Source: Mytilus galloprovincialis
Lineage: Eukaryota > Mollusca > Bivalvia > Mytilida > Mytilidae
Reading direction: 5' to 3'
Length of the DNA stretch: 64,000 nt
Assembly: GCF_965363235.1 (NCBI RefSeq)
Contig: NC_134847.1
Location: 55,088,439 to 55,152,438, forward strand
Position numbers and translations under genes: made by a program. The first letter of the stretch is position 1; each line of letters begins with the position of its first letter. Of the stretch, positions 10,676 to 63,754 are shown piece after piece. Below the pieces are notes generated by a model, which searched no databases, was not told the DNA's origin, and saw nothing but the letters and a program-made list of their open reading frames with translations.

Positions 10676-11405
10676 AAAAGGAAGGTTGGGATTGATTTTT
10701 GGAGTGTTGGTCACAACAGTTTAGGAATTAGGGGCCAAAAAAGGCCCAAATAAGCATTTTCTTGGTTTTCGCACTATAACTTTAGTTTAAGTAAATAGAA
10801 ATCTATAAAATTTTCACACAAGGTTTGTGACCACCAAAGGAAGGTTGTGACTGATTTAGGGAGTTTGGATTGATGTAAAGCAATTGCAAGTCTAGTAATA
10901 CTAGCATCATGTGATCAATATTTTGTAATATAATTACAATAAAATACTTATAGTATGTATACGGAGTCTCCCAAATAAGATTTTTTGCTATCGTAATTCG
11001 GATTGATGTTGGAATACGTGGATGTTAGGTGTCACTTTTATACTAGGTTCCAACAGTTTAGGAATTAGGGGCCAAACAAGGGCCCAAATAAGCATTATTC
11101 TTGGTTTTCGCATAATAATATTAGTATAAGTGAAAAGAAATCAATAAAACTTAAACAAGGTTTATGACCACAAAAGGAAGGTTGGGATTGTTTTTGGGAG
11201 TTGAGGTCCCAACAGTTTAGGAATAAGTAGCCAAAGAGGCCCAAATACGAATTTTTCTTGGTTTTCGCACCCTAACTTCAGTATAAGTAAATAGAAATCT
11301 ATGAAATTTAAACACAAGGTTTATGACCATAAAAGGAAGGTTGGGATTGATTTTGGGAGTTTTGATCCAAACGGGTTAGGAATAAGGGGCCCAACAGGTC
11401 CAAAA
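10676..11405 (+). repeat. 159-bp tandem repeat array, about four partial units
   Basis: Unit starts are marked by AAAAGGAAGGTTGGGATTG at 10676, 11172 and 11331, with a diverged start at about 10836; spacing between the last two is 159 bases. Each unit continues with AACAGTTTAGGAATTAGGGG, TTCTTGGTTTTCGCA and AAGGTTTATGACCA. About 160 bases of unrelated sequence (10876-11035) interrupt the array. The type is familiar to me from bivalve genomes (memory only). Confidence 0.9.
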
Positions 11406-24971: not shown

Positions 24972-25271
24972 TTAACAGTCAGCTGACCACCTTATTTTGT
25001 TGCCTCTTTGATCCTGATATTCATCTGGTATCCTTTGTTGCTCATTTTTAATTGTAGAAGAAGGATTTTCCACGGCAGGTCGCCTGGTCTGATCATTCGA
25101 CATAACGGGATTATCAAAATAATACACACTGATGTTTTCAGGGCGGCTGTTGTATTGGCTTCTTCGTTTGTCCTTTTTATGAGATTTTTTTCCGTTTTGG
25201 TTCTGGCTCCCTGATGCAACGGTGTGGGATCGTCTTACGACAACATCTTTGTTATCATTAGCTTGCTGTGG
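24972..25271 (-). CDS. aGPCR exon 29: terminal coding exon and stop
   Basis: Residues 1411-1509 and a TAA stop; 300 nt open in one frame, starting in phase 0 after TTTCTTTCTAAG. The tail is basic and polar (KKSHKKDKRRSQYNSR, later RRPAVENPSS) and ends WSADC. No domain and no standard PDZ-ligand ending is seen. Adhesion GPCR tails are commonly long and disordered like this. The exact match of phase and length supports it as the real last exon. Confidence 0.82.
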   Translation of the reverse strand, partial: PQQANDNKDVVVRRSHTVASGSQNQNGKKSHKKDKRRSQYNSRPENISVYYFDNPVMSNDQTRRPAVENPSSTIKNEQQRIPDEYQDQRGNKIRWSADC

Positions 25272-28200
25272 CTTAGAAAGAAAGGATATTTTTGATATGA
25301 TTAGCTTTTATCAAAATTAATACTAATAAAACTGGTGTTTAATACATGTATGCCAATTATGTATATAAAAACCCCGATTAATTGGGTTCTTTAGTTTCTA
25401 TGTTGTTTTGTGTACTGTTGGTTGTCCGTTGTCCGTTTTCGTTTTAAGCCATGGCAAAGTCATGTTTTTTTATTTATGAATATGGGTATCTTTAACCTCT
25501 CTTTAAGAGGCAATGATGATATCACATGTGAATGTTCCTCTACTACTTTAGCCTTTCACAGGCTTGCGTGACATGTTGAATGGCGTGAAATTATCAGATG
25601 TATGTTTCCAATTTACATCCAGAATTTATAATTAAATCAATTTGCCATTTCATTGTAATATTTGATATACTCATACTTATTTTTAAAATAATCTACCTTT
25701 TTGTTATCTCCGTCTGATTTCGATTTGTTCTGAACACTGTTTTGTTTTCCATTATCAGCTTTGACAGGTCCGTGTACATCTGTTGTAGATTTTGAATCAT
25801 TTTCTGGTGTAATGCTCTTATCCCCTTTTAGGCTATTTTGATTGGTATTTCTACTATTCTCAAAACTTGTGATCAGACTATCATTAAGTTTTTTTGCTTT
25901 CAAAATGCTAGTTGAATCTGTAAAAATAGTAACCGAATCCTATTTAAAAAATGCATACTCTTATACATGTTATATGTCTTTACAAATATACGTTTAATGG
26001 CATTATTCGGATAGATTTAAGCCAAGACTTTAACCAATAAACAAATGCATCGGCTTTGCAGACACACTTTTGTCCGATAGTTTTACACAATTTGGAGAGT
26101 TGACCACTGAATATGTGTGTCACAATTGTGGAAGGATAGTTTATATCTATCGTTATGCCTTGTTTTTGCTAAAGCTACCTTGGTTCATTTTTGCAGAGGT
26201 TCGTGATGCTCAGATTTTTGTTTCATAAGAATATGTTGATTTTGTCATATTTTTTCATAAATTTTATTGCACCTATTTGTAAGGTGTGAGTTTATTTTTT
26301 CACTTAACCCTGAGCCAACCTTAAAAACGATATTACGGTCTTAAAATCAAATCCGACGGTGTACTATATATATAGCTTTCATATAATGTCATTAATTTAA
26401 GTTTGACATACTTTTGTTATGAAATATTTTCAATGTGTTTTCCGGTCATTTATTTTTTTTGTAAATTTTGTCTTATGGCATTATCTTTTTCTTTAGAGCA
26501 TGAAGATTGCTGTTCTTTCGAGGTTTGAGTTTTAAATGCCCATTAATATATTTTTTATTTCTCAAATAGTTTTTGAAAGACAAAATAGAACATTGCTTTC
26601 TTACCACAACCCTTACCAGATGACTTTCTTTGCGAATCACTGGTTGACGTAGCAAAACTTTCCCTGGTAGTTTTCTGAAGACAAAAAGAACAGTATTCGA
26701 TCATTACATACATCCAATCAAAAATATTTCTGTTATCTATAGTTAAACTGACTGGTATATTTATTCAATATATTATTATTGTAAAACATCTTATTTCTAT
26801 CTCAGGGAAACAATCTAATTAGAAAAAGTAGAACCCAACGAATTTTCACTGAGTTTGGTTATTCAAGGTTATCATTTTGACCTGAGCGTCACTGATGAGT
26901 CTTATATAGACGAAACGCTTTCTGGCGTATTAAATTATAACAACTGGAAATGATTGCAACTAATTGTACATTATTAGTTTGTCTGTTATAAAGTTTGAAA
27001 TAAAAGCAAATGCTATAACGTTTGTATTTTCAGTTGAAATCAAACACATTTAATGACGACTAATATCAAGTTAAAGTTTGCCATATGGTCATGGCATTGT
27101 TAAATGTTTGGAAACTATAAATATGAACTACAATAAGATGGCCAAGACGGACAGATGCACTGGATAATACGTCACTCTATACTCCGCATCATGCCTGGTA
27201 ATAACAAAATCTCAATAACATAAATAACCAAATGACCTCTATGTAAACAAATACATGTTTTCTTAAGTTAAATCCGGGTGACAAATTAAAACCGAGGGAA
27301 TCTAAATACTAACTTTTGAGTTTTATTTTGAGTAAATTGTAGATATCTACTTACTTGTGAGCTTTGTTTTGAGTAAATTGATGCTTTATCAGCTCTCTTT
27401 ACTCGCATCGTTTGTATTCCTTCTCGAATCTGTTGGTTAAAAACTGTATGGAATAGGAAAATGAAAAATCCCTAAAATCATAAGATAAAAATATCTTAAA
27501 ACAAGAATGTGTCTATAGTACACGGATGCCCCACTCGCACTATTATTTTACATGTTCAGTGGACAGTTAAATTGGGGTCAATACTTTAATTTGGCATTAA
27601 AATAAGAAAGATCATATCATATGGGAACATGTGTACTAAGTTTCAGGTTGATTGGACTTCCACTTCATCAAAAACTACCTTGACCAGAAACCTAAACCTG
27701 AGATTCGCACTATCTTTTTCTTTGTTCAGTGGACCGTGAAATTGGGGTCAAAACTTTAATTTGGCATTAAAATTAGAAAAATCATATCATGGGAAACATG
27801 TGTACTAAGTTTCAAATTGATTGGACTTCAACTTTATCAAAAACTACCATGATCAAAAACTTAAACCTGAAGCGGGGCGAACGGAAGCACGGACGAACGG
27901 ACGAACGAACGGACAAACGAACGGAGGCAAAGACCAGAAATCATAATGCCCCTTTAATATCGTAGGTGGGGCATAAAAAAATGCTTCAAATCCCAGAGTA
28001 ATTATTACAACATTTGTTTCGAATCTCATCAGTCCTTGACCTTTATTTTTTAAAATCGTTCCTGATGAAAGAAAATCTAAAAAATAATTTCAAAAGCTTA
28101 AAATGGAGTATCCAGTAAGACCCTTTTTTTGGCCCCAGATATATCAACTTAAACAAAATTGTTATAAGTTGGAAATTAGAATGCTTCTGCTACATAAATA

Positions 28201-31200
28201 TTGGCTGTTTTTGACAATACAATGTACATATAGCGGGTACTAGCATCATTAAGTCATGCTATATTACTGAAATCTTCAAACTGTTTGCATTTTTGTTAAA
28301 ATTTAGTTTCCGTCTTAAATGAAAGTGGCCGCATTTGTGTTCAATCTTAATATTGAAATGTAAGTTGTATTTGATGATAATACATAACATATATAAAGGT
28401 TGAGGATGAGCACGGATGCGGCCACTTTCATTTTAGACAAAAAACATCTGAAAAGTGACATTTTTTTTGGGCAGATTTGATTAATTTTTCATATTTGGGG
28501 TAAAATCGGAGCGTTTTTTATGAGTGAATCAGTTAAAATCTTTCACATGAACTAATTGAATCAATTGAAATGGACACTGAAGGGTTTAAAAAGTGACCAA
28601 AATCTCTCGTCAGATGAACCCGAAATTTGAGGCCAAAATCGACCCTTACCGGACATACCCCTTTACAATTGGTATTTTCATTTTTCATTTACAAGGCATA
28701 AATATTCACTGAAGTGAACATGCTATTGAAAAAAAATCACTGAAAAAATTAGGAAAATGGAGGACATGTGCTCCCGATTCACACATTTCAATACACTCTT
28801 GTGAGTCGTATGAAGACGTAAGGCAAAATTGTAGTACAAAATTATACGCATTGTTATTCTAATGATTTTTAAAGATAATCTGAAATACATCCTTTTGGAT
28901 TTGTTATATATCAAACTGCAGACCAAATAAATTTACCTGTAAAGAGTTAAACACTGCAAACAAATACTGGAATAAAACGGTCTCCTCGTTAACCGAGAAC
29001 ACTCCTAGGACCCATGTGACACCAAACAATGGTAAAATAACACACAAACTCCTTATTCCAGCTCTGCAATAACAATTACATGTTATCAATAGTTTCTTTA
29101 TAGTTATGATAAGAATGTCTTAAGAGCGGAAACGGCAACTAAATAATGCTTTGATCATACAGTTTTATTCTATATTATTTAAATATCAGTATTTAATGAA
29201 CTCATTTCAATTGAACAAATTTTCGTAACAAATTGTTTAAATGCAAGCAGTAATCTATTGCAATAGATTTTCATTATACCTTTAATCTTTATTCACATAT
29301 ATATATAATTTTTTGTATTTTACTACCATGTATTGCAAATTGTTTATCCATTCGGTCATTACAATTTATTGTAAATGCGTTTGTGCCAATAAGATATTGT
29401 CTATTTTCTTTTGTCTATTGAATGTGATCTTTTTTATATAACTTTATCAGATCCTATATGTAAGCAAATAAAGGCAAAAGTAGTATACCGCAGTTCAAAA
29501 GTCATAAATCGATTGAGAGACAACAAATCTGGGTTACAAACTAAAACCGAGTGAAAAAACACCCACTATCAGAGAAAAACAACACAGACGTATAACAAAA
29601 AACATACATACAAATGAACTATAAGTTAACAACAGCCACATTCCTGACATGGTACAGGAAATTAAAAAAAATAATGGTGAGTTGAATCTGGTTTATGGCT
29701 AGCCAAACCGCCGCACTGTATGTCAATGTTAGATATACCGCTCAGACGACAACATTACAATAGTTATCAAAAGTACCAGGCTTATAATTTAGTACGCCAG
29801 ACGCGCGTTTCGTCTAGATAAGACTCATCAGTGACGCTCATATCAAAATATTTATACAGCCAAAAAAGTACAAAATTGAAGAGCATTGGGGATCCACAAT
29901 TCCAAAAAGTTGTGCCAAATACGGCTAAGGTAATCTATGCCTTGGATAAGAAAATTCTAAGTTTTTCGAAAAATTCAAAGTTTTGTAAACAGGACATTTA
30001 TAATACAAGACTGGAATACAGTACAAATAAATGCATGAACAATAAAAGGTAATACCTAAAGATAATTTAGGACAGTACACAAAAACAGCTTAATAGAATA
30101 GATTGAACATTATGTGTCTTAATTAACACAAATAAATCAACACCACAAAATATATTTAGTAACATACTTTGCTCGTTCTTTTGTTGTCTTGTCCATCATG
30201 GCATGAGTGGCAAACATTGTTCTCAACACCAAAATGAGAATAATAAGGTTTACCTAAAAAAATGACAGAGGTTATGTTTTTATTGGTTTTTTATTAGAGA
30301 CATGCTTAACATTATAATCATTTGTCAAAAATATTACCTTAGATCTCAAAGTGTTTATCGAGACAATTTGTTTTATAATAGTGTTTGATGAATTAAGAAA
30401 GTTTGAATAACAGCTTTTTTTAAACGTTTTATGTTAACACTGTGGTGTTTCTTTTTAATTCATTGAACTTCATTTTTATTGGCCAATGACTTATTATACC
30501 ATGACATCAAGGCATCGGTCTTTTGTTAATGACTGTATGTTGCTCTCTATATTTGGTTTGCTGTATTTGTTGTAGGGTTAATGTCTAATCGACGTATATC
30601 CAAAATTCATTTTTGTTAGGGAAATCGAGTTTTTCATTATAAAATAGCGTATTGTAAGATTAAAATCTGTTATTTTTCGTACCAAAATAACCGTTAATGC
30701 AGGCCCCACAAATGCCCATATCAAGTTGGACTCAACAGAAAGCCAGCAACTGAAAAGAAAATGAAAACATGATTTTCATTTTAAAAGAGGCCATGCGGTT
30801 ACTTGAATATTTGTACTAACACTTTGCTAAAAAAAAATTCATTTGAAATACGTTTTTATAAAAGTATATGAAACGCAAAATAAATAGGAATTAGCAATAC
30901 AACACTCAATGGTGGTGTCTATAATAATCCTTTACAGTAATGCATATGGTAAAAAGGTTTCTATGTATAACATGTGTTTTTGGAACAATCTTAATTAACG
31001 TTTCGGTGTTGTGTCGTAGTTCTCTTATATTTGATACGTTTCCCTCAGTTTTAGTTTGTAACCCGGATTTGTTTTTTTCTCTATCGATTTATGAATTTTG
31101 AACAGCGGTATACTACTGTTGCCTTTATTTAATTAGGTATGCTTCAGATAAAAGATTTGGTAAGACAAATATATATAGAAAAAAATTAAAAACAGATTAA

Positions 31201-55200: not shown

Positions 55201-58200
55201 CCATTTTCTCCCTGACAACATTACAATATAAATATGTGTCTGCAATATAATTCATAGACAGGTTGTGTGTTTTCTACGGTCTTCAAATTCACCCGTTTAA
55301 TATCAAACTTTCACTGCCAACCTCCGTAAATACACGTCAAAATGGAAATTTCTTGATAAATGAAGTCGTCAGATTCACTCAGCCTAACGAATCTTGTCAC
55401 GTCTCGACCTTTTTCGCCAGGCTCCATTTGAAGGCAAGCATTTTCAACGTCTGTCGATGCTGCAAATTAGTCTAATCTAAATCTTGTTTGTCTCATTGTT
55501 CTCAGCAGTTACATTCATTTACAATACTCATTGAAGTGGTTGGTGCGTAAATGAAATGACTCGGATAAACTAGGTCAAGTAGATCATCGTTTTACATAAG
55601 ATAACAATGTATTTACCGATTATCAGGTTGTCTGCATATTGCTATAGTAGAATATTGGCTGCGAGTCATAATATGAAGCTATTGCCGAGTGAGCGAAGCG
55701 AACTAGATCAAAAGGCTTCATAATGTGTCAGATAACCTGATAATCGATTTATCGGATTTTATGAAGTGTTTTCTTTGTTTCGCCAGCAAACTGGAAGATG
55801 CCTTGATAAGTGCAGGTTAAACTTAATAACGTCTGGTCAAACATTGTGACGTTGCTGATATATAGTCGGGTCAAAGTTATTATGACCGGGTCAACCTATT
55901 TGACGTCCCAATGCCGTGATATACAATTTTATAAATAGCTGAGCAGAGTAATATAGACAGTGGGACGACCGATAAGTCCTTATAAGCTGTTATGTTGTTG
56001 TCATATACCTCGCTATACTAATATCTGTTTTTAAACACATTCATAGCGTATGTTATATGTATATGTATGTTTATATATTATAAATTACATTTTAAAGGTC
56101 TTAACTCCTTTTACTTTGCTTTAGATATTTCTATGAGGATAGGCTGTCACCTCTTCATGCTGATTTTTTCCATACGCGAACTCAATGTTCATATCATGAT
56201 TTGTCAGTTTGTTTGCGACTGCGTATGAACATCCCTATGATACATTTCGCCTTTCTTTTTGTCATGATTTCAATTTAGACAGAATATGACGAAGGACCAA
56301 TACTGAACTGGAAATACATACTTATTTCATATTAAACATCAGACGTCGATCTGAAGTTAATATATATCTGGTATATATTTACTTGTTGTCGCAGGTTTTA
56401 CGGTTCGTCTACGCCAAGGTCAATAGGGTTTGGTTAATAGTTGTATCATTGGCATTTACGGCACACTTCTTATTTTTAATACTGTTCGTATATATGATAA
56501 GCGTTTAGTCGTTTATGTCATAGATAAATAATGCAATACAATATGCGAAGAAAATAACTTAACAAGCAGAACATTTTCCATTTGTATGTCAAAAATATGT
56601 ATTTTGATTGATATGTCCTGATAATGGAGTTAATGTTAATTTATTCACATTTATCTTATTGTAGTTATAGTACATGTTATATGGTTGGCTCCTTTGTTGT
56701 TAGTTTAAAACATAGCTTTGCTTACCTTTAGTTGTCAACATAATGTGAGGAGTTTTAACAGTAGTATCTCTAATTGTTGCGTGACAGGTATAATATCCTA
56801 AATCATTTTTTTCTACAGAAATAATGGTAAGAGATGGAGTATTAATAGTTCCACCAAAAAACCTTGGATTCCCTGCTATATCAATAGGATTTTCGTTTTT
56901 AAACCATGTCACCACTGCTTCACCGGTTACCACACATTCCAGTGTTACATTAGAATACAAGGTTGATGAATAAAAGGTAACAGGAGCACTAACTGATAAA
57001 AGACCTGAAAAAATAAAGTAAACATTTACTAAGAGTAAATCAGAAAACAAATAAAGGCAACAGTAGTAAACCGCTGTTCGAACTCATAAATCGATTGCGA
57101 AAGAACAAATCCGGGTAACAAACGAAAACTGAGGGAAACGCACCAAATATAAGAATAGAACAACGACACAACAGAAACACAACATGTAAATGTAACACAC
57201 ACAGAAACGGACTAAAATATAACAATGGTAATTTTCCTGAGGAAAAATCACATTATATATAAAGATAAGGTGATGGTGTATGATTGCCAATGAGACAAAA
57301 TGAATAAGATTTCAACAACAAGGTCACCGTACAGCCTTCAACTAAGAACAAAACCCATGCCGCATAATGATAAAAGGCTCCGAAATGGCAAATGTAAAAT
57401 AATTCATACGAGTAATCTAACGGCCTTATCTATGTACAAAATAAATAAATAAAAAAACAAAACAAATATGACACACAGTATTACAGGCTCCTGACTTGGG
57501 ACAGGTACATACATAATGTGGGACAGGCTTATATCTGAGAGTACTAGCAGTTACTGGCATTTCAAAGCCAAAAATAGCCAATTAGAAAAATTATACATCT
57601 AGGACTTAAAAAAGTTTACATATAGGACTTTAAGCTATTATTTCAAGCCCCTTCATACTACAGTTCTCATATACGAAAGTTGTAAAAAAGCATTCCAATA
57701 TTTTTTTCAAGAATTTAACAAAATTCCCTTATGTGGCGATTCTTTTGTTATTTATTATAGACAGCGAAAACTGCATTCTAAAAAAATCCTCCAAATTTTT
57801 TAAATTCCTCAAACGCTCAATATATGCCCTTTATAAATCTTATTAGTCGTGTATAGTGGTTAGGTCAAGACATATTGATTCGTCCATTTTATTTTAATCA
57901 ATGCATATTGTTCTAGTAACAGCTTTCTTTGAAACCTTTACAAATGTCCAAAATACCATGATCTGCAAAATGACTCATTTTCATAATTCGTTCTCTAAAT
58001 GACGTTGTCATTGTCATTATAAGAAAAGAAATAATGTGTTCCATCATTCATTCATTTTGGAAGGAACATTACAAGTGCAAAAAGGAATATGCTATTTATA
58101 TGTAGCATACATATGTTTTTATTTTCGAAGTTGAACTTTTAAAATACCAATATTGGCCTTGCTTACAAATCAATGCAAACTCAAAATCAGTTACCTGCGT

Positions 58201-61200: not shown

Positions 61201-63754
61201 TCACAAAAATACTAAAAAAATCAATAACCAATATTCTTAGACCCCGTTTACACTGACAAAAAAGATCGATCTTTACTAAGATTGATCTTGGTCCTGTGTA
61301 AATATGTAAGATCGATCTCCAATCGGATTTAAAAAGCCTACCTCTAGAGTTTGTTTAAAAAAAATCGATCTTATTTGAATCGATATTTTTTCTGGTGTAA
61401 ACGCTTAGATCAAACACGATCAATCTTTTTTCGGGTGAATGTTATGCTTAGATACAAAAAAAATAAAGTTCATACCGGTTCTTTTTATGTTGTAGTGTAA
61501 ACGCACTGGATTAAATAAGATCGATCGCGATCGATCTTGCGTAAGCAATGTAAACGCAAACTGGTCTTTTTAAGATCGATTCAAATATATCGATTCAATT
61601 ATTTGGTAGTATAAACGGGGTCTATTACTCTGCAAAAATACAAAGACAGACATCGAAAACGATGGTTCACCTAGATTGACCAGGTCAAATGTACAAAATG
61701 AGAAAATCCAGTGTTATGTGTGCATCTCTTGCAAATTTAGACCATATGTTAATAAATAAATGACGCAGTAAAAAATGCCCATCTAATCAATGTCATAAAT
61801 CAGAAATAAAGACAACATGTAATATGTAAAGCAATAGTTGTCTTTGCTCACTACTAAAGAATGTAGCTTATGTGGACGGAGTAGTTGGTTAAACACTCTC
61901 GCTTAGGAGAAGACAAAGACTCACGCCTTATAGATTTATATCAACATTGTCTCAGCATGCATGTATTCATCACAATCGGCAGTATAACCGAGGAGTCAGC
62001 TGATAGTCATGTTATCACAAGTCAAATTTTGGATTAAACTTACCTTCCCTTTCGCATATATAGTTGACAGCATTGTGCGATTCATGATCGAACCATCCAT
62101 TTGAATTAGTCATTACATAATCTTGAATGTAGCCATTTGCATTCGTGTTGTCATTTGGTTCACCCGGGTTCCATTTTGTATACGTAAACGACGTTCCAGA
62201 CCACCATTTCCATGAACCCTCAACGCCATTATCCGTCCCTCCTAACCAGAAATCTAAAAAGGTTGTATTGAAAGTTTTATACTTAATTAGAGAAAACAAG
62301 TGTGACCATTTCCTGGGAAACTCAGTATGTTGATAGAAATCTTCATTTCATCAATATATACTGGGACCGACATCATCACTTTACATAGCTTAAATATGAG
62401 CCATTTGAACTTAACTTCTCAATCGTATAGACCGAGATATAACGAATTGTATGAAGAAGACATAAAAATATCCGTACATTTTCAAAATCTATCTTAAAAG
62501 AATATCGAAAAGTCATCGGCATATGTAATTACTCCTTGCATATTTTAGAGCAAAATACATTTACTTTTATATCTTGAACGTTTACTGAAGATAAAATCGT
62601 GGATAAACAAACTTTAACATCAACTATTTTAATATTGATGTCGAGCACAATATTCCTAAAATGATAAACAGTACCTGATCAAAAACTAAAATAACAAAAA
62701 TACCGGACTCCGAGAAAAATTCTAAACGGAAAGTCCCTATGCAAATGGCAAAATCAGAAGCTGAAATACATCAAACGAATGGATAACAACTGTCGTATTC
62801 CTGACTTGGAACAGGCATTTTCGTATGTAGAAAATAGTGAACTTAAACCTGGTTTGATAGCTAGCTTAACCTCTCAATTGTATGATAATCGCTTAAAATT
62901 CCGTTATTTTGAAACCCATGTGTGAAAAAATTAAACAGACATAATAGGTAAAAATGTCAAAAATCATTGTCATGATTGTGTTTTAATCCTTATCACCACT
63001 AAAACTAACGAATGTATCAACAAAGAAAAACAAACAAAAAAGGCATATAGACAAAGCACATTAGCAAAAACGAACTAAAGAATTGAAACGAATTTATAGC
63101 AACTGTCATATTCCTGTCTTGGTACAGGCATTTTCCTATAAAAAAAAATGATGGATTAGACCTGGTTTGATAGCTAGCTTAACCTCTCACTTGTATGACA
63201 GTGGAATAAAATTCCACTATATTGACAACGATTTTTAACAAATCAAACAGACATAATAGGTAAAAATGTCAAAATATGGTTACATCAGTCAACATTGTGT
63301 CATAATCTCAATCACTATAAAAATGAATTTTGTCATTACAAAATTGAAGTTCTCATAAAACAAGTCTGTATCACATAGTTTTGTAAGACAAAAATTATTT
63401 TGTTATGACAAAAATTATTTTGTTATGACAAAATTGAATTTTGTGTACACAAAATTGATTTTGATTAAAAAAAGTTCAAGTTTCATTCGGCGCCCCGTAG
63501 AAGCAGCAGTTGTTAATCATGTTCAAAGCTAGTCAATTAATTCCGACAAAAATCTAATAATATGAAAAGAATGAATTTTTAAAACAAATTGAAATGTATC
63601 AAATATCTGCATTCGGCGATATCATATAAATAATTATAAGTAAATTACACCTACATTGTCCAGAGTGCGCCTCTGATATAACTAATCGAATGAAGTTGTC
63701 CTCATCTTCTGTTTCTATCTCTGCAAGTTTTGCGTCGTATTCTCGACAATAACT
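24972..63754 (-). CDS. Adhesion GPCR: CTLD, six Ig domains, HRM, GAIN/GPS, 7TM (5' partial)
   Basis: Gene-level entry; the 29 exons are listed separately. The spliced frame is 1509 codons plus a stop. Residue numbers in the exon entries count from the first visible residue. Order: CTLD (1-103), Ig1-Ig4 (104-499), Ig5-Ig6 (500-703, each split by an intron), HRM (704-766), GAIN (771-1033) ending in the GPS, 7TM (about 1040-1290), cytoplasmic tail (to 1509). All introns are GT-AG and all phases agree. Adhesion GPCRs are surface receptors whose GAIN domain usually self-cleaves at the GPS, leaving an N-terminal fragment bound to the 7TM part; a tethered peptide then activates G-protein signalling. 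The lectin and Ig modules suggest a glycan or protein ligand outside the cell (inference). The start codon, signal peptide and first part of the CTLD lie beyond the window, and I saw no promoter. Confidence 0.93.
25380..25500 (+). mobile_element. Diverged RT-family tail in the last aGPCR intron
   Basis: Weak ordered matches to the RT element tail: TTAGTTTCTATGTTGTTTTG, then AAGCCATGGCAAAGTCATG, and a tail-like end in CCTCTCTTT. Orientation is antisense to the host gene. It is strongly eroded, so the call is tentative. Confidence 0.5.
25697..25917 (-). CDS. aGPCR exon 28: cytoplasmic tail, Asn/Ser/Lys-rich
   Basis: Residues 1337-1410; 221 nt, phase 1 to 0. Low-complexity hydrophilic tail rich in Asn, Ser, Lys and Asp (for example NKSKSDGDNKK), with no recognised domain. 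The GTAGAT donor leaves phase 0, matching exon 29. If that donor is not used, the frame reads on 20 codons to a stop at 25637-25639, giving a shorter alternative C-terminus. Acceptor ATTTTTACAG. Confidence 0.8.
26617..26674 (-). CDS. aGPCR exon 27: cytoplasmic tail, small exon with tandem donors
   Basis: Residues 1318-1337; 58 nt, phase 0 to 1. Reads KTTRESFATSTSDSQRKSS, a Ser/Thr-rich stretch with basic residues, suited to kinase sites (inference). Two donors fit: GTAAGG, giving this end, and GTAAGA 12 nt further on, which would end the exon at 26605 and add four codons in the same phase. Acceptor TTTTGTCTTCAG. Confidence 0.78.
26875..26940 (-). repeat. Dispersed repeat family C, short reversed copy
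   Basis: Plus strand shows GAGCGTCACTGATGAGTCTT, then GACGAAACGCTTTCTGGCGT, the reverse of the family C core. Lies in an aGPCR intron. Confidence 0.75.
27355..27471 (-). CDS. aGPCR exon 26: end of transmembrane helix 7 and helix 8
   Basis: Residues 1279-1317; 117 nt, phase 0-0. Reads GFFIFLFHTVFNQQIREGIQ, the normal G-x-F-I-F-x-F-x-x-x-x-x-N-x-x-V/I end of TM7 and helix 8. A basic stretch (MRVKRADKASIYSKQSSQ) begins the cytoplasmic tail. Acceptor TATGATTTTAG, donor GTAAGT. Confidence 0.93.
27500..27980 (+). repeat. Dispersed repeat family A, internally duplicated copy, in an aGPCR intron
   Basis: Carries the central block (CAGTGGAC, AATTGGGGTCAA, TTTGGCATTAAAAT, ACATGTGTACTAAGTTTCA) twice, at about 27555-27700 and 27727-27865, then an ACGGACGAACGGACGAACGA stretch and GGTGGGGCATAAAA. 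It ends about 30 bases upstream, in gene sense, of the exon 26 acceptor. Confidence 0.85.
28937..29063 (-). CDS. aGPCR exon 25: transmembrane helices 6 and start of 7
   Basis: Residues 1236-1278; phase 2 to 0. Reads AGIRSLCVILPLFGVTWVLG, the TM6 signature of the family, and then FQYLFAVFNSLQ, the start of TM7. Acceptor TTATTGCAG, donor GTAAAT. Confidence 0.94.
29460..29740 (+). repeat. Dispersed repeat family B, aGPCR intron
   Basis: Blocks AAATAAAGGCAAAAGTAGTA, GTCATAAATCGATTGAGAG and AAACTAAAACCGAGTGAAA, then an ACATTCCTGACATGGTACAG end that also occurs in family F. Confidence 0.8.
29755..30050 (+). repeat. Dispersed repeat family C, longer copy
   Basis: Core GCCAGACGCGCGTTTCGTCT and CTCATCAGTGACGCTCA, followed by AAATTGAAGAGCATTGGGGA and a stretch shared with 41.7 kb. 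The long open frame here (29831-30052) is part of the repeat and not a recognised gene. Confidence 0.85.
30168..30253 (-). CDS. aGPCR exon 24: end of transmembrane helix 5 and intracellular loop 3
   Basis: Residues 1208-1235; 86 nt, phase 0 to 2. VNLIILILVLRTMFATHA completes TM5. MMDKTTKERAK forms the basic third intracellular loop, a usual G-protein contact. Acceptor TTTTTTTAG, donor GTATGT. Confidence 0.92.
30683..30749 (-). CDS. aGPCR exon 23: extracellular loop 2 and transmembrane helix 5
   Basis: Residues 1185-1207; 67 nt, phase 2 to 0. Reads CWLSVESNLIWAFVGPALTV. CWLS carries the loop-2 Cys that pairs with TM3, and IWAFVGP is the invariant TM5 motif of adhesion GPCRs. Acceptor CTTTTCAG, donor GTACGA. 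Confidence 0.93.
31000..31135 (-). repeat. Dispersed repeat family B, reversed copy
   Basis: Plus strand shows TTTCCCTCAGTTTTAGTTTG, TCTCTATCGATTTATGA and TACTGTTGCCTTTATTTAAT, the reverse complement of the family B blocks. Lies in an aGPCR intron. Confidence 0.8.
31446..31465 (+). repeat. (AATC)n microsatellite
   Basis: Five AATC units, about 55 bases on the exon 23 side of exon 22. Confidence 0.9.
31520..31589 (-). CDS. aGPCR exon 22: transmembrane helix 4
   Basis: Residues 1162-1184; 70 nt, phase 1 to 2. Reads SPAVIVGISMGATKLDGYGN, then SQ and a split codon. The P-x-x-I-V-G-I-S core is the family TM4 motif, followed by the second extracellular loop (DGYG). The GTATTT donor was chosen because it is the GT before the in-frame stop that keeps phase with exon 23 and gives YGNSQYCWLS across the junction. 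Confidence 0.9.
32250..32400 (-). CDS. aGPCR exon 21: transmembrane helices 3 and start of 4
   Basis: Residues 1112-1161; phase 0 to 1. Reads KVCTAMAVLLHYIFLVDFAF, then MLAEGIEI. It contains the TM3 Cys that pairs with the second extracellular loop and the LLHYxFL and ML-EG motifs of class B receptors. The usual Trp of the F-x-W-M-L motif is Phe (FAFML). It ends with the TM4 start, WLIPTCW. Acceptor CAAATTGTAG, donor GTACAG. Confidence 0.93.
32766..32895 (-). CDS. aGPCR exon 20: intracellular loop 1 and transmembrane helix 2
   Basis: Residues 1068-1111; phase 2 to 0. A basic loop (MRGRKIKRDKA) is followed by the TM2 helix ILLVNFCVALTLSYILFLSG, matching the family I-x-x-N-L-C-x-x-L motif. Acceptor ATTTTTGTAG, donor GTATGT. 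Confidence 0.93.
33280..33383 (-). CDS. aGPCR exon 19: transmembrane helix 1
   Basis: Residues 1034-1067; phase 0 to 2. After the linker PSSHSLVLSKIS comes a hydrophobic helix, AVGCGISILFLVVTVMI, ending HGMLW. This is a normal adhesion-GPCR TM1 (L-S-x-I-x-x-x-G-C-x-I-S). Acceptor CTATTTGCAG, donor GTAATT. Confidence 0.93.
33566..33689 (-). CDS. aGPCR exon 18: GPS cleavage site and tethered agonist
   Basis: Residues 992-1033; phase 2 to 0. Reads NTPNGAWSFVGSKL, then GITVCQYDHTTNFALLMSP. The canonical end of a GPS is C-x-C-x-H-L-T/S with cleavage before T/S. Here it is C-Q-Y-D-H-T-T, so the P1 residue is Thr rather than Leu, the second Cys of the CxC pair is Tyr, and the usual Cys after G (Gly-Cys) is absent. 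TNFALLMSP matches a normal tethered-agonist peptide. Cleavage is plausible but not assured. Donor GTGAGT. Confidence 0.93.
34070..34200 (-). repeat. Dispersed repeat family E, reversed 3' fragment
   Basis: Plus strand AAAATGGAAATGGGGAAAG, then ACAACAACCTGACCATAGAA and AGCGAGAAATTCTCGC, the reverse of the family E end. Lies in an aGPCR intron. Confidence 0.75.
34683..34729 (-). CDS. aGPCR exon 17: GPS motif, first part (47-nt exon)
   Basis: Residues 977-991; phase 0 to 2. This very short exon encodes VNYSNPVCAFWDFDA. The CAFWDF block is the diagnostic start of the GPS motif, with its first Cys and the invariant Trp. Acceptor TTTACATTACAG, donor GTAAGT. It is too short for ORF-based detection and was found from the motif and phase. 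Confidence 0.93.
36236..36440 (-). repeat. CCGT-rich repeat, probably related to family A
   Basis: Plus strand reads TTTTATGCCCCC, then a run of CCGTCCGTCC-type units (36270-36325). This mirrors the GGGGCATAA end and ACGGACGG stretch of family A in reverse. Lies in the intron before exon 17. Confidence 0.6.
36640..36745 (-). repeat. Dispersed repeat family D, reversed
   Basis: Plus strand shows GAAGGCCGTACTTTAACC, then GAGTTGTCTCATTGGCAC and CACCACATCTTCCTAT. Lies in an aGPCR intron. Confidence 0.8.
37588..37605 (+). repeat. Poly-C run
   Basis: About 16 C in a row followed by AAACC. A second long homopolymer, a G run, sits at 9860-9876 in the foldback arm. Confidence 0.9.
37690..37885 (-). 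repeat. CGGGAT-rich repeat in aGPCR intron
   Basis: Many copies of CGGGATT/CGGGATC and TTAAACGGGAC at irregular spacing, for example TTAAACGGGACC then TTAAACGGGACT. The minus-strand frame (37964-37737) is open across most of it but gives a low-complexity peptide unlike any family I know. Confidence 0.6.
38137..38150 (+). repeat. (AT)n microsatellite
   Basis: Short AT dinucleotide run in the intron between exons 16 and 17. Confidence 0.85.
39493..39610 (-). CDS. aGPCR exon 16: GAIN subdomain B strands
   Basis: Residues 937-976; phase 2 to 0. Reads SVVATNGSYDINSVVIDFSI, then LKRPLIIKFEHVQ. The first part is the classic S-V-V-A-x-x strand and the last part is the strand leading to the GPS (P-L-I-I-K-F-x-H). 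Acceptor GTTTCAG, donor GTATGT. A 4.8 kb intron follows, the longest within the GAIN-7TM part. Confidence 0.92.
40040..40118 (-). CDS. aGPCR exon 15: GAIN subdomain B
   Basis: Residues 911-936; 79 nt, phase 1 to 2. Reads KQPVGYSTTYYRNISDLF, ending LSDG. The YYRNISDL segment matches the common YKNL-type motif of GAIN subdomain B. Acceptor ATTGTTACAG, donor GTACGT. There is one potential N-glycosylation site (NIS). Confidence 0.88.
40450..40830. repeat. Possible old insert in aGPCR intron, weak resemblance to RT-family tail
   Basis: AACACCATGACTAAAGACAA resembles the GCCATGGCTAAAAATGAAAA stretch of the RT tail read in reverse, and ATCCGAATGGAACCAGGTG follows. Too diverged for a firm call. Confidence 0.3.
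40873..40992 (-). CDS. aGPCR exon 14: GAIN, subdomain A to B transition
   Basis: Residues 871-910; 120 nt, phase 1-1. Reads VQVGKVLSEDITFPKK, then LPDWITESTNQVTLSKDNFQ. This resembles the strand entry of GAIN subdomain B, where short strands such as QVTLSK precede the Y-x-N region. Acceptor TTGCATTTCAG, donor GTAATT. Confidence 0.85.
41409..41517 (-). CDS. aGPCR exon 13: GAIN subdomain A, continued
   Basis: Residues 835-871; phase 0 to 1. Encodes NFTGVTAIAKAVTVYTKAY and NDSVFQRTVQKDQL. It was chosen because it is the only phase-compatible open segment in this intron interval, with acceptor GGAATAG and donor GTTAGT. A nearer AG (GTGTAACAG) would break the phase. It carries a possible N-glycosylation site (NFT). 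Helical character fits GAIN, but sequence conservation is weak here. Confidence 0.72.
41655..41870 (+). repeat. Dispersed repeat family C, aGPCR intron
   Basis: ATTTGATACGCCAGACGCAC, CTCATCAGTGACGCTCAGAT and GTTGAAGAGCATTGAGGA, in the same order as at 29.8 kb. Confidence 0.85.
42644..42835 (-). CDS. aGPCR exon 12: GAIN subdomain A, first helices
   Basis: Residues 771-834; 192 nt, phase 0-0. A charged helical segment (TDLLKNGIEVKDVNNIL, later LDISSSILDNIAVHAKD) typical of the helical subdomain A of GAIN. It sits in the right position, between HRM and the beta-rich subdomain B. Acceptor TTTCATTTGTAG, donor GTATGT. The open frame past the donor is intronic. Confidence 0.85.
43990..44150 (-). 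repeat. Dispersed repeat family F, reversed, aGPCR intron
   Basis: Plus strand shows AAGTCAGGAATATGACAGTT, CTTTGATTAG-like and CGTAGTTCAGTATTTTTGTG blocks, the reverse of family F. Ends just before the exon 11 donor. Confidence 0.7.
44180..44274 (-). CDS. aGPCR exon 11: hormone-receptor motif (HRM), second half
   Basis: Residues 739-770; phase 1 to 0. The sequence TVSRLCNSNGEWEEPNYSTC completes the HRM with the R-L-C, G-x-W and final Cys signature. A leucine-rich stretch then leads into the GAIN domain. The acceptor has a long T run ending TTTGTAG; donor GTATAC. From here on, introns are no longer uniformly phase 1, so the change of gene structure coincides with the end of the modular ectodomain. 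Confidence 0.92.
44661..44765 (-). CDS. aGPCR exon 10: hormone-receptor motif (HRM), first half
   Basis: Residues 704-738; phase 1-1. The sequence YCPVNVDQFESFWVYT followed by IISCPGDRAG fits the HRM pattern C-x(n)-W-x(2)-T-x(n)-CP-x(n)-G, found before the GAIN domain in many adhesion GPCRs and in secretin receptors. Acceptor TATCTTTTAG, donor GTAACT. The exon has no start codon in frame. Confidence 0.9.
45177..45323 (-). CDS. aGPCR exon 9: end of Ig domain 6
   Basis: Residues 655-703; 147 nt, phase 1-1. Completes Ig6 with the E- and F-strands (Cys in VQYECSGINNYGEG) and a G-strand (LVSHISVIKPN). Donor GTAAGT. The intron upstream, between this exon and exon 8, contains the large RT element copy at 45.5-46.6 kb. 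Confidence 0.9.
45483..46595 (-). mobile_element. RT element copy with intact RT core, in aGPCR intron 8
   Basis: The most complete RT core of the family. The minus-strand frame is open from about 46585 to a stop at 45785-45787. It contains RT motif B (GIPMGTNCAPLLADLFLYYY), the catalytic box FRYIDDVL, the following SASYLDLHLEID strand region, and the post-RT segment ending QMISDMFLTS. The 3' tail follows. The 5' end is truncated (no motif A) at a T run (46582-46595 as A on the plus strand). Same orientation as the host gene, between exons 8 and 9. No GIY-YIG domain is visible. Penelope-like affinity is probable, not proved. Confidence 0.88.
47120..47335 (-). CDS. aGPCR exon 8: end of Ig domain 5 and start of Ig domain 6
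   Basis: Residues 583-654; phase 1-1. The first codons (NLTCEVSDG) supply the missing F-strand Cys of Ig5. After a short linker (IIGKPIVSISP), Ig6 begins with Cys in VNIYCNV and Trp in ILWYKNGD. It ends at NPNK before a GTAAGT donor. The exon therefore bridges two domains, which supports the exon chain strongly. The acceptor TTTAACAG lies upstream of the first in-frame ATG. Confidence 0.9.
48037..48285 (-). CDS. aGPCR exon 7: Ig domain 5, first part
   Basis: Residues 500-582; phase 1-1. Carries the B-strand Cys (VTVMCEA), the C-strand Trp (FATWKLNN) and the E-strand, and stops at LQTSDSG just before the F-strand Cys. Unlike Ig1-Ig4, this domain is interrupted by an intron. Reading on past the GTATAT donor gives a short false extension that is not coding. 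Confidence 0.9.
48590..49020 (+). repeat. Probable dispersed repeat with a 29-bp tandem duplication
   Basis: GAGCTTTTTGACTAAAATGG followed by AGCAAATGT occurs twice in tandem (48919-48976). The flanks (CTGACTCCTGAGCTGAAGG, AAGCCAAATCCAACT) look repeat-derived. No other copy is seen in this window. Lies in the intron between exons 6 and 7. Confidence 0.5.
49136..49432 (-). CDS. aGPCR exon 6: Ig domain 4
   Basis: Residues 401-499; 297 nt, phase 1-1. It has no internal ATG in frame near its start, so a simple ATG-to-stop ORF scan would miss it. The sequence shows IPAVHIS, Cys in ITLECTA, Trp in VFWVKD, and NQSLTISDVDNNDEG leading to HYTCYASNTIG. Potential N-glycosylation sites include NDT and NQS. 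Acceptor AATTTTACAG, donor GTAAGT. Confidence 0.92.
50113..50433 (-). CDS. aGPCR exon 5: Ig domain 3
   Basis: Residues 294-400; 321 nt, phase 1-1. Ig fold residues are Cys in ISITCII, Trp in VQWIFTN, and Cys in DAGQYSCRA. The exon opens with AKPVVDVP, a common linker before an Ig A-strand. The stretch ITNPSLTIMHLESSDAG again resembles Ig1 and Ig2. Acceptor CATCCACAG, donor GTATGG. Confidence 0.93.
50434..53164 (-). other. Intron 4 between Ig2 and Ig3
   Basis: 2.7 kb, AT-rich. Contains the SINE at 52.3-52.6 kb; nothing else recognised. Confidence 0.7.
52310..52600 (-). mobile_element. tRNA-derived SINE in aGPCR intron
   Basis: Read on the minus strand from 52600, it begins GGAGGGCCTTGGTGTAATAG (A-box-like) and has GGTTCGATC (B-box-like) about 50 bases on, as in a tRNA-derived pol III promoter. 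A body with GACTGAGTTTTCGGCTCTCC and TCGAAAAAAGAGTAGGCTAA follows and ends GCAACACTCGCTACC. I remember this body as a bivalve/mollusc SINE type (memory only). Between exons 4 and 5; same strand as the host gene. Confidence 0.82.
53165..53455 (-). CDS. aGPCR exon 4: Ig domain 2
   Basis: Residues 197-293; 291 nt, phase 1-1. Ig fold residues are Cys in VTLQCII, Trp in IDWHFNN, and Cys in DLGLYMCLAS. There are Asn-rich potential glycosylation sites (NNS). The sequence INNPSLTITSVEQNDLG nearly repeats Ig1. Acceptor TTATTTCAG, donor GTAAGT. Confidence 0.93.
54032..54834. mobile_element. MITE of about 800 bp with terminal inverted repeats
   Basis: The left end GGGCCCAGTTTCACGAAGCT pairs with the right end AGCTTCGTGAAACCGGCCCC. 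Several TCTTAGGA/TCCTAAGA-type motifs sit near both ends, and the centre is AT-rich with no ORF. Lies in the intron between exons 3 and 4. The target-site duplication is not clear. Non-autonomous DNA element by structure. Confidence 0.85.
55615..55748. repeat. Palindrome of about 130 bp, nested hairpin
   Basis: CGATTATCAGGTTGTCTG (55617-55634) pairs with CAGATAACCTGATAATCG (55729-55746), 17 of 18 positions. Inside, CATAATATGAAGC pairs loosely with GCTTCATAATGTG. The loop contains GAGTGAGCGAAGCGAA. Could be a small foldback element. Confidence 0.8.
56726..57004 (-). CDS. aGPCR exon 3: Ig domain 1
   Basis: Residues 104-196. A complete I-set-like Ig domain in one symmetric phase 1-1 exon of 279 nt. 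Key residues are the B-strand Cys in VTLECVV, the C-strand Trp in VTWFKN, and the F-strand Cys in DLGYYTCHA. It is closest to Ig2 in the stretch before the second Cys (INTPSLTIISVEKNDLG), which points to exon duplication. Acceptor TTTTTCAG, donor GTAAGC. Confidence 0.93.
57045..57235 (+). repeat. Dispersed repeat family B, next to Ig1 exon
   Basis: CAAATAAAGGCAACAGTAGT, ACTCATAAATCGATTGCGA, AAAACTGAGGGAAACG and an A-rich tail. Begins about 40 bases upstream, in gene sense, of the exon 3 acceptor. Confidence 0.85.
57262..57515 (+). repeat. Dispersed repeat family D, aGPCR intron
   Basis: GGTGTATGATTGCCAATGAG, AGGTCACCGTACAGCCTTCA and TTACAGGCTCCTGACTTGGG. Follows a family B copy directly. Confidence 0.85.
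61238..61624. mobile_element. MITE of 387 bp with TAGACCCCGTTTA termini
   Basis: TAGACCCCGTTTACACT at the left and TAAACGGGGTCTA at the right are inverted copies. The interior repeats AAGATCGATCTT-type palindromes and GTGTAAACGC variants. No ORF. The outer TA could be the target duplication. Lies in the intron between the CTLD and Ig1. Confidence 0.87.
61862..61935 (+). repeat. tRNA-like fragment, possible truncated SINE head
   Basis: GGACGGAGTAGTTGGTTAAA and CACTCTCGCTTAGGAGAAG look like the D-arm and anticodon-arm half of a tRNA, with an A-box-like AGTAGTTGG. No B-box or acceptor closure is seen, so it is not called a tRNA gene. Confidence 0.35.
62044..62253 (-). CDS. aGPCR exon 2: C-terminal half of C-type lectin domain
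   Basis: Residues 34-103; phase 1 to 1. Joining to exon 1 makes the expected FWLGG strand. The calcium/sugar loop reads KWNPGEPND, an EPN (mannose-type) signature. The WND motif appears as WFD. The domain closes on NYICERE with the last conserved Cys. The inner Cys pair is missing: the first position is Tyr (IQDYVMT) and the second falls in HESHN. The fold call is firm; sugar binding is uncertain because of these changes. Confidence 0.92.
62690..63315 (+). repeat. Family F repeat with a tandem second unit of about 310 bases, aGPCR intron 1
   Basis: The block ACAGGCATTTTC, CCTGGTTTGATAGCTAGCTT, AACCTCTCA, CAGACATAATAGGTAAAAAT occurs at 62810-62965 and again at 63125-63280. Sits between the two CTLD exons. 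Confidence 0.85.
63330..63475 (+). repeat. Short tandem repeat rich in TTTTGTTATGACAAAA
   Basis: Repeated 20-bp units of AAAATTATTTTGTTATGACA type (63395-63435) flanked by variants such as GAATTTTGTGTACACAAAAT. The units are partly palindromic. Confidence 0.8.
63655..63754 (-). CDS. aGPCR exon 1: N-terminal half of C-type lectin domain
   Basis: Residues 1-33. Starts in phase 0 after a TATAG acceptor and ends in phase 1 at a GTAGGT donor. The peptide SYCREYDAKLAEIETEDE is the typical alpha-1/alpha-2 helix region of a CTLD, with the first conserved Cys (usually paired with the last Cys of the fold) followed by the A-K-L-A-E-I motif. The earlier CTLD strand and the signal peptide must be in an exon further right. 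The remaining 246 bases to the window edge show no clear candidate. Confidence 0.9.

What the first reader, a model, noticed from the sequence alone, without database searches (positions are those of the whole stretch)
24972..63754. Adhesion GPCR with an unfamiliar ectodomain: C-type lectin, six Ig domains, HRM, GAIN/GPS
The 29-exon chain has matching phases throughout and totals 4530 nt, so the domains belong to one gene. Ig plus HRM ectodomains occur in vertebrate ADGRA receptors (with LRRs), and Ig plus GAIN in ADGRF5. I know of no named adhesion GPCR family that places a CTLD before an Ig array and an HRM. A lectin at the tip of a long Ig stalk on a signalling receptor suggests recognition of glycans from microbes or neighbouring cells. 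Novelty is judged from memory only.
Basis: partly seen in the sequence, partly recalled or inferred. Interest (0 to 1): 0.85.

Follow-up and report, generated by a model that had tools for sequence, protein, structure and literature searches.

The report
Mussel lectin-Ig adhesion GPCR gene
A Mediterranean mussel gene encodes a cell-surface signalling receptor with a long stalk of thirteen immunoglobulin domains and a lectin-like domain in the middle of it, and its stalk half and signalling half appear to have different evolutionary histories.

Summary
On the minus strand, 30 in-frame exons (63754 to 24972; 4,614 nt) encode part of a C-type lectin domain (CTLD), six Ig, HRM, GAIN/GPS, 7TM and a tail. 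The window cuts the gene: nine upstream exons complete a 39-exon, 2,303-aa open frame: signal peptide, seven more Ig, one CTLD, six Ig, HRM, GAIN, 7TM. The lectin sits mid-stalk, not at the tip.
A tandem paralogue (gene B, NCBI "hemicentin-1-like") identifies the genome as Mytilus galloprovincialis. CTLD-bearing adhesion GPCRs are published for amphioxus and placozoans and deposited for other animals; among listed hits, CTLD with Ig and HRM occurred only in Mytilus.
Two further results. The receptor falls in a Mytilus-only clade in which 25 of 25 rows lack the second GPS cysteine pair. Genes A and B have dS 0.76 across the outer half but 0.11-0.25 across the inner half, and introns align collinearly only in the inner half, which suggests gene conversion or recombination between Ig2 and Ig3. 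Expression, ligand, cleavage and immune role are untested.

The parts
63655..63754 (-). exon (gene exon 10 of 39): middle of CTLD (SYCREYDAKLAEIE...)
   Evidence: similar to both CTLDs of P0002
62044..62253 (-). exon: C-terminal part of CTLD with EPN and WFD
   Evidence: Pfam Lectin_C
56726..57004 (-). exon: Ig domain 1 of the window (8th of the gene)
   Evidence: Pfam; phase 1-1
53165..53455 (-). exon: Ig 2; 5' side of the A/B history breakpoint
50113..50433 (-). exon: Ig 3; 3' side of the A/B history breakpoint
49136..49432 (-). exon: Ig 4
48037..48285 (-). exon: Ig 5, first part
47120..47335 (-). exon: Ig 5 end and Ig 6 start
45177..45323 (-). exon: Ig 6 end
44661..44765 (-). exon: HRM first part
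   Evidence: Pfam HRM
44180..44274 (-). exon: HRM second part
42644..42835 (-). exon: GAIN subdomain A
   Evidence: Pfam GAIN
42335..42406 (-). exon: GAIN subdomain A
41409..41517 (-). exon: GAIN subdomain A (NFTGVTAIAK...)
40873..40992 (-). exon: GAIN subdomain B
40040..40118 (-). exon: GAIN subdomain B (YYRNIS)
39493..39610 (-). exon: GAIN subdomain B
34683..34729 (-). exon: GPS first part (CAFWDF, cysteine C1)
   Evidence: Pfam GPS
33566..33689 (-). exon: GPS second part, His-Thr-Thr motif and tethered agonist TNFALLM; C2 is Ser and C4 is Tyr
33280..33383 (-). exon: TM1
   Evidence: Pfam 7tm_2
32766..32895 (-). exon: TM2
32250..32400 (-). exon: TM3 (conserved VC)
31520..31589 (-). exon: TM4 and start of ECL2 (weak donor site)
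30683..30749 (-). exon: ECL2 CWL and TM5
30168..30253 (-). exon: end of TM5 towards TM6
28937..29063 (-). exon: TM6-TM7
27355..27471 (-). exon: TM7 end and start of tail
26605..26674 (-). exon: cytoplasmic tail
25697..25917 (-). exon: cytoplasmic tail
24972..25271 (-). last exon: tail end and stop (acceptor 25271 or 25265)

Best explanation
It is the 3' part of one intact adhesion GPCR gene (gene A) of Mytilus galloprovincialis, about 67.7 kb long: signal peptide, 7 Ig, 1 CTLD, 6 Ig, HRM, GAIN with GPS, 7TM, tail (shown as an open, phase-matched exon chain). It belongs to a Mytilus-only clade whose members share the GAIN-7TM core but differ in the outer ectodomain (shown on deposited models). 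The Ig exons of the stalk and the three-exon CTLD unit are bounded by phase-1 introns, so they can be duplicated or swapped without a frameshift (phases shown; exon shuffling inferred). Most likely mechanism (inferred): the stalk and its lectin-like domain bind a ligand on microbes, matrix or cells; pull or displacement at the GAIN domain exposes the tethered agonist TNFALLM, which activates the 7TM bundle and a G protein. The outer halves of genes A and B diverged long ago, while the inner, signalling halves were homogenised or re-duplicated later (dS pattern shown; process inferred).
For: 39 exons, 6,912 nt, no internal stop, all phases matching; Pfam on residues 1-2,093 of 2,303 and on the window's pieces. 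Gene B's deposited model P0002 joins signal peptide, Ig, CTLDs, Ig, HRM, GAIN and TM1 in one protein; P0001 joins the end of Ig1 to the C-tail; P0006 is a paralogue with CTLD, Ig, SEA, HRM (21.9 bits, under the cut-off of 26.2), GAIN and 7TM in one model. Fold: the clade member P0009 gives a model with mean pLDDT 77.5 and pTM 0.58, most blocks from Ig to 7TM above 75 and the tail under 50; its best PDB match is BAI3 HormR-GAIN 4dlo (TMt 0.80). Activation residues named in PMC9489211 (passages) are present: Met at position 7 of the tethered agonist, ECL2 CWL, TM3 Cys. Tree and GPS cysteines. dS and intron alignment. Informative sites win=californianus: win=gene B are 25:2 in Ig2 and 25:54 in Ig3-TM1, Fisher p 1.8e-8, boundary chosen after looking. 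Lead for an immune role: a transcript annotated 'Adhesion G protein-coupled receptor B1' is listed at fold change 1,192.8 in M. galloprovincialis gill after a Vibrio splendidus bath (PMC7772429, passage).
Against: No transcript or protein of gene A was seen; every gene model used here, mine included, is a prediction. No intact protein of gene A was among the hits listed (one search listed 120 of 720). The up-regulated 'ADGRB1' transcript was not shown to be this gene or clade. The CTLD lacks the WND asparagine and the inner disulfide, so sugar binding is not assured. G protein-coupled receptors are among the families under-represented in mussel dispensable genes (PMC7653742, passage), against a simple 'variable immune gene' view. 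dN/dS in the outer half is 0.33, so there is no sign of positive selection averaged over it. In Ig3, Ig4 and HRM gene A is almost as close to M. californianus as to gene B (80 against 81%, 87 against 89%, 90 against 90%), so the late homogenisation shows clearly only in Ig5, Ig6, GAIN and 7TM.
Confidence: 0.62

Rival explanations
1. Two genes read as one: an outer secreted or membrane Ig-CTLD protein ends before the Ig3 or GAIN exons, and the adhesion GPCR proper starts inside the Ig array.
For: A 15.4-kb intron lies between 79192 and 63754; the M. californianus model P0001 starts at the end of Ig1; the A/B divergence changes sharply between Ig2 and Ig3; NCBI names gene B 'hemicentin-1-like'.
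Against: All 39 exons keep phase with no stop; gene B's deposited model spans signal peptide to TM1; P0006 independently joins CTLD and 7TM; P0001's first residues come from the end of the Ig1 exon, so its model looks cut rather than started.
Confidence: 0.1
2. Ordinary cell-adhesion or developmental adhesion GPCR: the stalk binds an endogenous protein (homophilic or matrix) and the CTLD is a structural module without sugar binding.
For: WFD instead of WND and no inner disulfide; 14 of the 15 stalk units from the first Ig to the HRM are not lectins; dN/dS 0.33 in the outer half indicates constraint.
Against: EPN is kept in A and in one CTLD of B; B has QPD in the other (meaning of the motifs recalled); the outer ectodomain differs strongly between clade members.
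Confidence: 0.3
3. The dS step reflects a younger partial duplication: gene A or B received its 3' half by a single segmental duplication fused to an old 5' half, rather than by gene conversion.
For: Collinear introns only from about 24.9 to 49.6 kb and mainly exons outside.
Against: Both genes have the same exon order on both sides of the break, which conversion explains with fewer steps.
Confidence: 0.4

Closest known systems
Mytilus galloprovincialis gene B, NCBI 'hemicentin-1-like' (P0002)
   Same: Same chromosome, same strand, about 29 kb away, same exon order; GAIN+GPS 94% identical
   Different: Two CTLDs instead of one; outer Ig exons 48-74% identical; its TM1 exon has an in-frame stop in the assembly, so the annotated product ends in TM1 although TM2-to-tail exons are still in the DNA at 86-100% identity
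Mytilus californianus 'adhesion GPCR L3-like' (P0001)
   Same: End of Ig1 to C-tail; 7TM 93% and Ig2 91% identical
   Different: Deposited model lacks everything before the end of Ig1
M. galloprovincialis LOC143047887 (P0006)
   Same: CTLD, Ig, HRM (weak), GAIN, GPS and 7TM in one model; same clade
   Different: CTLD at the N-terminus, cadherin-like (under cut-off) and SEA domains, about four Ig; 7TM 57% identical
CTLD-bearing adhesion GPCRs of molluscs, hemichordates and echinoderms (P0103, P0105, P0109, P0111, P0112, P0142, P0144, P0147), amphioxus (PMC2246102) and placozoans (PMC6321704)
   Same: CTLD on a GPS-7TM receptor
   Different: 0 of the 8 scanned has an Ig or HRM match at E 0.001; 8 of 8 fall outside the window's mollusc group in the 7TM tree. 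Amphioxus and placozoan sequences were not compared
ADGRB (BAI) family
   Same: HormR-GAIN fold: 4dlo is the best PDB match by sequence and, for a clade member, by fold; several mussel relatives carry the name ADGRB1-like
   Different: No thrombospondin repeats found in this gene; the three vertebrate ADGRB3 rows kept form a separate branch in the 7TM tree, base unresolved

Membership tests
Adhesion GPCR class | Secretin/adhesion-type 7TM domain | tested here: met
   7tm_2 2.4e-49; best PDB sequence matches ADGRD1, then ADGRL3
Adhesion GPCR class | GAIN domain with GPS | tested here: met
   GAIN 34.1 and GPS 35.9 bits in the full product, both over cut-off; fold of a clade member
Adhesion GPCR class | Cleavage residues His at -2 and Ser/Thr at +1 (PMC3776922, passages; that paper says the consensus is often lost) | tested here: met
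   H-T-T in the window gene; 24 of 25 clade rows have HTT, one HTK
Adhesion GPCR class | Actual self-cleavage and signalling | not testable with these tools
   needs expression
Common GPS pattern (usual, not taken as defining the class) | Four GPS cysteines | tested here: not met
   C2 and C4 are Ser and Tyr; both lost in 25 of 25 clade rows, all four kept in 61 of 65 other rows
ADGRA (Ig + LRR + HRM; recalled) | Leucine-rich repeats | tested here: not met
   no LRR match in residues 1-2,093
ADGRA (Ig + LRR + HRM; recalled) | 7TM groups with ADGRA | not tested
   no ADGRA row in the tree
ADGRF5 (SEA + Ig + GAIN; recalled) | SEA domain | tested here: not met
   no SEA match
ADGRB (BAI) | Thrombospondin type 1 repeats (recalled; seen as PF00090 in the ADGRB3 rows) | tested here: not met
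ADGRB (BAI) | 7TM groups with ADGRB | tested here: inconclusive
   separate branch, base of tree open, quick tree, long branches
Hemicentin (NCBI name of gene B) | Ig array with VWA and EGF/fibulin domains and no 7TM (recalled) | tested here: not met
   no VWA or EGF match, 7tm_2 present
Placozoan-type CTLD GPCR | Ectodomain consisting of CTLDs (PMC6321704) | tested here: not met
   13 Ig units, one CTLD
Sugar-binding C-type lectin | EPN/QPD motif (recalled) | tested here: met
   EPN in the 62044-62253 exon
Sugar-binding C-type lectin | WND motif (recalled) | tested here: not met
   WFD
Sugar-binding C-type lectin | Inner disulfide C2-C3 (recalled) | tested here: not met
   no Cys between SYC and YIC in the product

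The most novel reading that the evidence does not exclude
Mussels have a lineage-specific 'variable ectodomain, constant signaller' receptor family: tandem and dispersed adhesion GPCRs whose outer Ig/lectin modules diverge and are rearranged through phase-1 exons, while their GAIN-7TM halves are kept alike by gene conversion and carry a GPS with a single disulfide that could lower the force or ligand threshold for release of the tethered agonist. It would serve recognition of microbes or of non-self cells.
Probability: 0.22. Interest if true: 0.8.

Novelty: new variant of a known kind. Interest (0 to 1): 0.56.

Why it matters
CTLD-bearing adhesion GPCRs have been reported from amphioxus and placozoans. 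Here one has a 13-Ig stalk and sits in a Mytilus clade with a shared change in the GPS, the part that holds the tethered agonist. If the A/B pattern is gene conversion, it gives a natural experiment on how a receptor keeps its signalling half while its recognition half diverges. The GPS change (25 of 25 rows) is directly testable: PMC3776922 (passages) reports that the equivalent of a human GPR56 GPS cysteine mutation, disrupting the predicted disulfide pattern, abolished LAT-1 surface expression, yet this clade dispenses with another cysteine pair altogether. It also shows that gene naming ('hemicentin-1-like', 'L3-like', 'B1-like') hides one family.

Tried and rejected
Draft exons from the first two gene-finder passes (31 exons, 38), among them 55322-55459, 47602-47628, 43742-43799, 41973-42048, 36264-36355 and 35716-35725, were rejected: no counterpart in P0001 or P0002, or the correct exon was found beside them.

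The idea that the Ig2 discordance was a wrong exon choice in an annotated model was rejected: gene B's DNA carries that Ig2 exon in place, and synonymous sites show the same step.

The idea that P0002's missing 7TM is only an annotation gap was rejected: the TM1 exon of gene B has an in-frame stop in the assembly; an assembly error is not excluded.

Literature: eight paper searches. No listed title or abstract was on CTLD-Ig adhesion GPCRs of bivalves or on this GPS change; several lists were capped (20 of 101, 20 of 46, 8 of 52). That is the extent of my 'not in print'. Papers were seen as passages or one named section; none was read whole. Passages seen but not used: PMC12716839, PMC4302439, PMC7430831, PMC7308585.

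Rfam gave 0 matches at gathering thresholds. Of 178 ORFs, 10 were scanned: two weak reverse-transcriptase matches, otherwise sub-cut-off noise or nothing.

Full report
WHAT WAS CHECKED. The finding claims an exon chain from 63754 to 24972 that encodes CTLD, six Ig, HRM, GAIN/GPS and 7TM. I rebuilt it with a splice-aware gene finder, curated it by phase and by comparison with deposited proteins and obtained 30 exons on the minus strand, 4,614 nt, one stop at the end. One splice donor (31520) is weak, but the junction gives DGYGNSQYCWLS, which P0001 has too. The acceptor of the last exon is uncertain by 6 nt.

IDENTITY OF THE GENOME. The database search returned Mytilus proteins: P0001 (M. californianus, 'adhesion G protein-coupled receptor L3-like'), P0002 (M. 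galloprovincialis, 'hemicentin-1-like') and paralogues. The window's own genome, reached once, has 1,384,861,812 bases in 331 contigs, and the window lies at C10:55088439-55152438. C10 is 91,363,364 bases long, the same length as the contig that carries P0002 and P0006. P0002 maps segment by segment to C10:55027991-55084835, minus strand: 15 of 32 segments at 100% and the others at 74.6-99.0%, where the hits run past exon ends. The genome is therefore, by inference, M. galloprovincialis.

THE WHOLE GENE. P0002 starts with a signal peptide and seven Ig domains before its CTLDs, so I fetched the DNA to the right of the window. In extended window coordinates it holds, on the same strand, a signal-peptide exon (92643-92718), seven Ig exons (91811-92125, 90353-90670, 89763-90041, 88161-88445, 87431-87748, 84412-84717, 82298-82600) and the first CTLD exon (79192-79289). 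All have GT-AG flanks and the phases match into the window's first exon. The complete frame is 39 exons, 6,912 nt, 2,303 aa, no internal stop. Pfam on residues 1-2,093 gives Ig_3 in 11 separate stretches, one Lectin_C, HRM, GAIN, GPS and 7tm_2; the count of thirteen Ig units rests on exons and on alignment to P0002. From the signal peptide to the second HRM exon the introns are phase 1 except one phase-0 intron inside the CTLD, between 79192 and 63754.

WHERE THE LECTIN IS. It is the eighth domain of the stalk, between seven and six Ig units. The CTLD has EPN but WFD where WND is usual, and no cysteine between the outer pair (meaning of these motifs recalled). Gene B has two CTLDs, one with EPN and one with QPD.

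RELATIVES. Of 720 proteins with E up to 1e-10 to the GPS-7TM region, the best 120 were listed. Nine of those 120 carry a precomputed Lectin_C, and one of the nine (P0006) also has Ig. I scanned the other eight together and P0006 on its own (its HRM, 21.9 bits, and cadherin, 23.7, are under Pfam's cut-offs). For a 7TM tree, 123 of 163 held proteins matched the query; three were dropped by a length rule (P0049, P0145, and P0002, whose model has no TM2-7), leaving 120 and the window. I then removed 27 rows that are or look like vertebrate ADGRB3 and four near-duplicates, leaving 90. The quick tree places the window in a 25-row clade (SH-aLRT 98) of Mytilus proteins only, with one Tegillarca protein as next neighbour; the program warns that stars of quick trees with long rows deserve less trust. 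The CTLD label needs at least five changes on this tree, or four if possibly truncated Mytilus rows are ignored; gains and losses are not told apart. Different members of the clade carry Ig, LRR, SEA, cadherin or CTLD in the outer part. For M. galloprovincialis at least six loci are implied: genes A and B, P0006, P0008, P0011 and P0044, on contigs of three lengths, if those belong to one assembly. A whole-genome count was not obtained.

GPS CHANGE. In the alignment of the 90 rows, 25 of 25 clade rows have lost the second and fourth GPS cysteines (21 have Ser and Tyr with the rest usual; single rows show Ala for Ser, Phe for Tyr, a lost first Cys, or HTK). Of 65 other rows, 61 keep all four; the four exceptions are two rows with other losses, one gapped row and one row with Val and Thr. 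A GPS cysteine mutation equivalent to a human GPR56 disease mutation abolished LAT-1 surface expression (PMC3776922, passages). By position the clade keeps that cysteine (C1; numbering recalled) and its presumed partner C3 (pairing recalled), and drops the other pair; one clade row (P0053) shows Pro at C1. The cleavage residues and tethered agonist are kept in the window gene. Whether the change alters stability, cleavage or threshold is unknown.

TWO HISTORIES IN ONE GENE. Gene A against gene B, Nei-Gojobori on the best tblastn match of each exon (for the CTLD exons these come from either CTLD of B): dS 0.76 (200 bootstraps, 0.66-0.88) over 992 codons from the first Ig to Ig2; 0.25 in Ig3-Ig4; 0.14 in Ig5-Ig6; 0.17 in HRM-GPS; 0.11 in 7TM; 0.11 in the tail group. 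dN/dS is 0.33, 0.31, 0.22, 0.19, 0.14 and 0.48. Single exons range 0.46-1.28 outside the break (the signal-peptide exon, 0.60, was not in the group) and 0-0.32 inside it. BLASTN finds collinear intron DNA only between about 24.9 and 49.6 kb; further out the collinear matches are exons, the rest scattered repeats. Against M. californianus, Ig2 of gene A is 91% identical while gene B's Ig2 is 67% to both; Ig5 and Ig6 of A are closer to B (92 and 96%) than to M. californianus (83 and 89%); Ig3, Ig4 and HRM are near ties (sites). So the outer halves separated before the species did, as far as Ig2 shows, and the inner halves later, with the break between 53165 and 50433. Gene conversion or a partial duplication can both do this. 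That inner halves are homogenised across the clade is not shown; it rests on one pair.

OTHER RESULTS. In P0002 a run of about four Ig domains of the first array aligns with the second array at 42% over about 430 residues (7.6e-95), evidence of block duplication inside the stalk. The structural model of P0009, a clade member without CTLD, has mean pLDDT 77.5 and pTM 0.58 with the tail disordered; its best PDB match is BAI3 HormR-GAIN. The window gene's own spliced product was not folded. No other match to P0002 was found up to about 30 kb upstream of gene A or in about 15 kb downstream of gene B.

MECHANISM, WITH STATUS. Shown: anatomy, phases, clade, GPS residues, dS step. Inferred from the adhesion GPCR class: GAIN cleavage, tethered agonism, G-protein coupling. 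Inferred with least support: that the CTLD or Ig stalk recognises microbial or cell-surface glycans. The one expression lead is a transcript named ADGRB1 listed at fold change 1,192.8 in mussel gill after Vibrio (PMC7772429, passage), which may or may not be a member of this clade. Against a highly variable immune gene stand the constraint in the outer half (dN/dS 0.33) and the under-representation of GPCRs among dispensable mussel genes (PMC7653742, passage).

NOVELTY. CTLD plus adhesion GPCR is known (PMC2246102, passages; PMC6321704, section 8). CTLD plus Ig array plus HRM-GAIN-7TM was found here only in Mytilus models, among the hits listed. I call it a new variant of a known kind.

Noticed in passing
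C10:55020776-55084835 (-), loci L015-L021: Tandem paralogue gene B: two CTLDs; an in-frame stop in its TM1 exon while TM2-to-tail exons remain 86-100% identical to gene A. Single-pass product, young pseudogene, allele or assembly error cannot be told apart.
   Followed up: partly
window 45788-46600 (-): Reverse-transcriptase-like open frame in the intron between Ig6 exons (RVT_1 4.5e-4, 20.4 bits, under the cut-off); Penelope-like by recalled motif.
   Followed up: partly
window 20764-21561 (+): Second reverse-transcriptase-like open frame (RVT_1 1.9e-6, 28.2 bits, just under the cut-off) downstream of the gene.
   Followed up: partly
GPS region, window 33566-33689 and 24 other Mytilus proteins: Clade-wide loss of the second GPS cysteine pair, with His-Thr before the cleavage Thr (25 of 25 rows lack both cysteines). 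His-Thr-Thr also occurs in 9 of 65 other rows.
   Followed up: yes
whole genome G000: 143 7tm_2 matches, many spanning nearly the whole profile in one open frame and clustered (for example C9:19.68-19.83 Mb); a large secretin/adhesion repertoire (only 150 of 387 candidates were scored).
   Followed up: no
P0004 (M. coruscus): Deposited model lacks part of the GAIN domain and the TM6 region and contains a stretch with no counterpart in P0001, probably a mis-joined prediction.
   Followed up: no
window 11045-11404: Tandem repeat, period 159, 2.3 copies.
   Followed up: no
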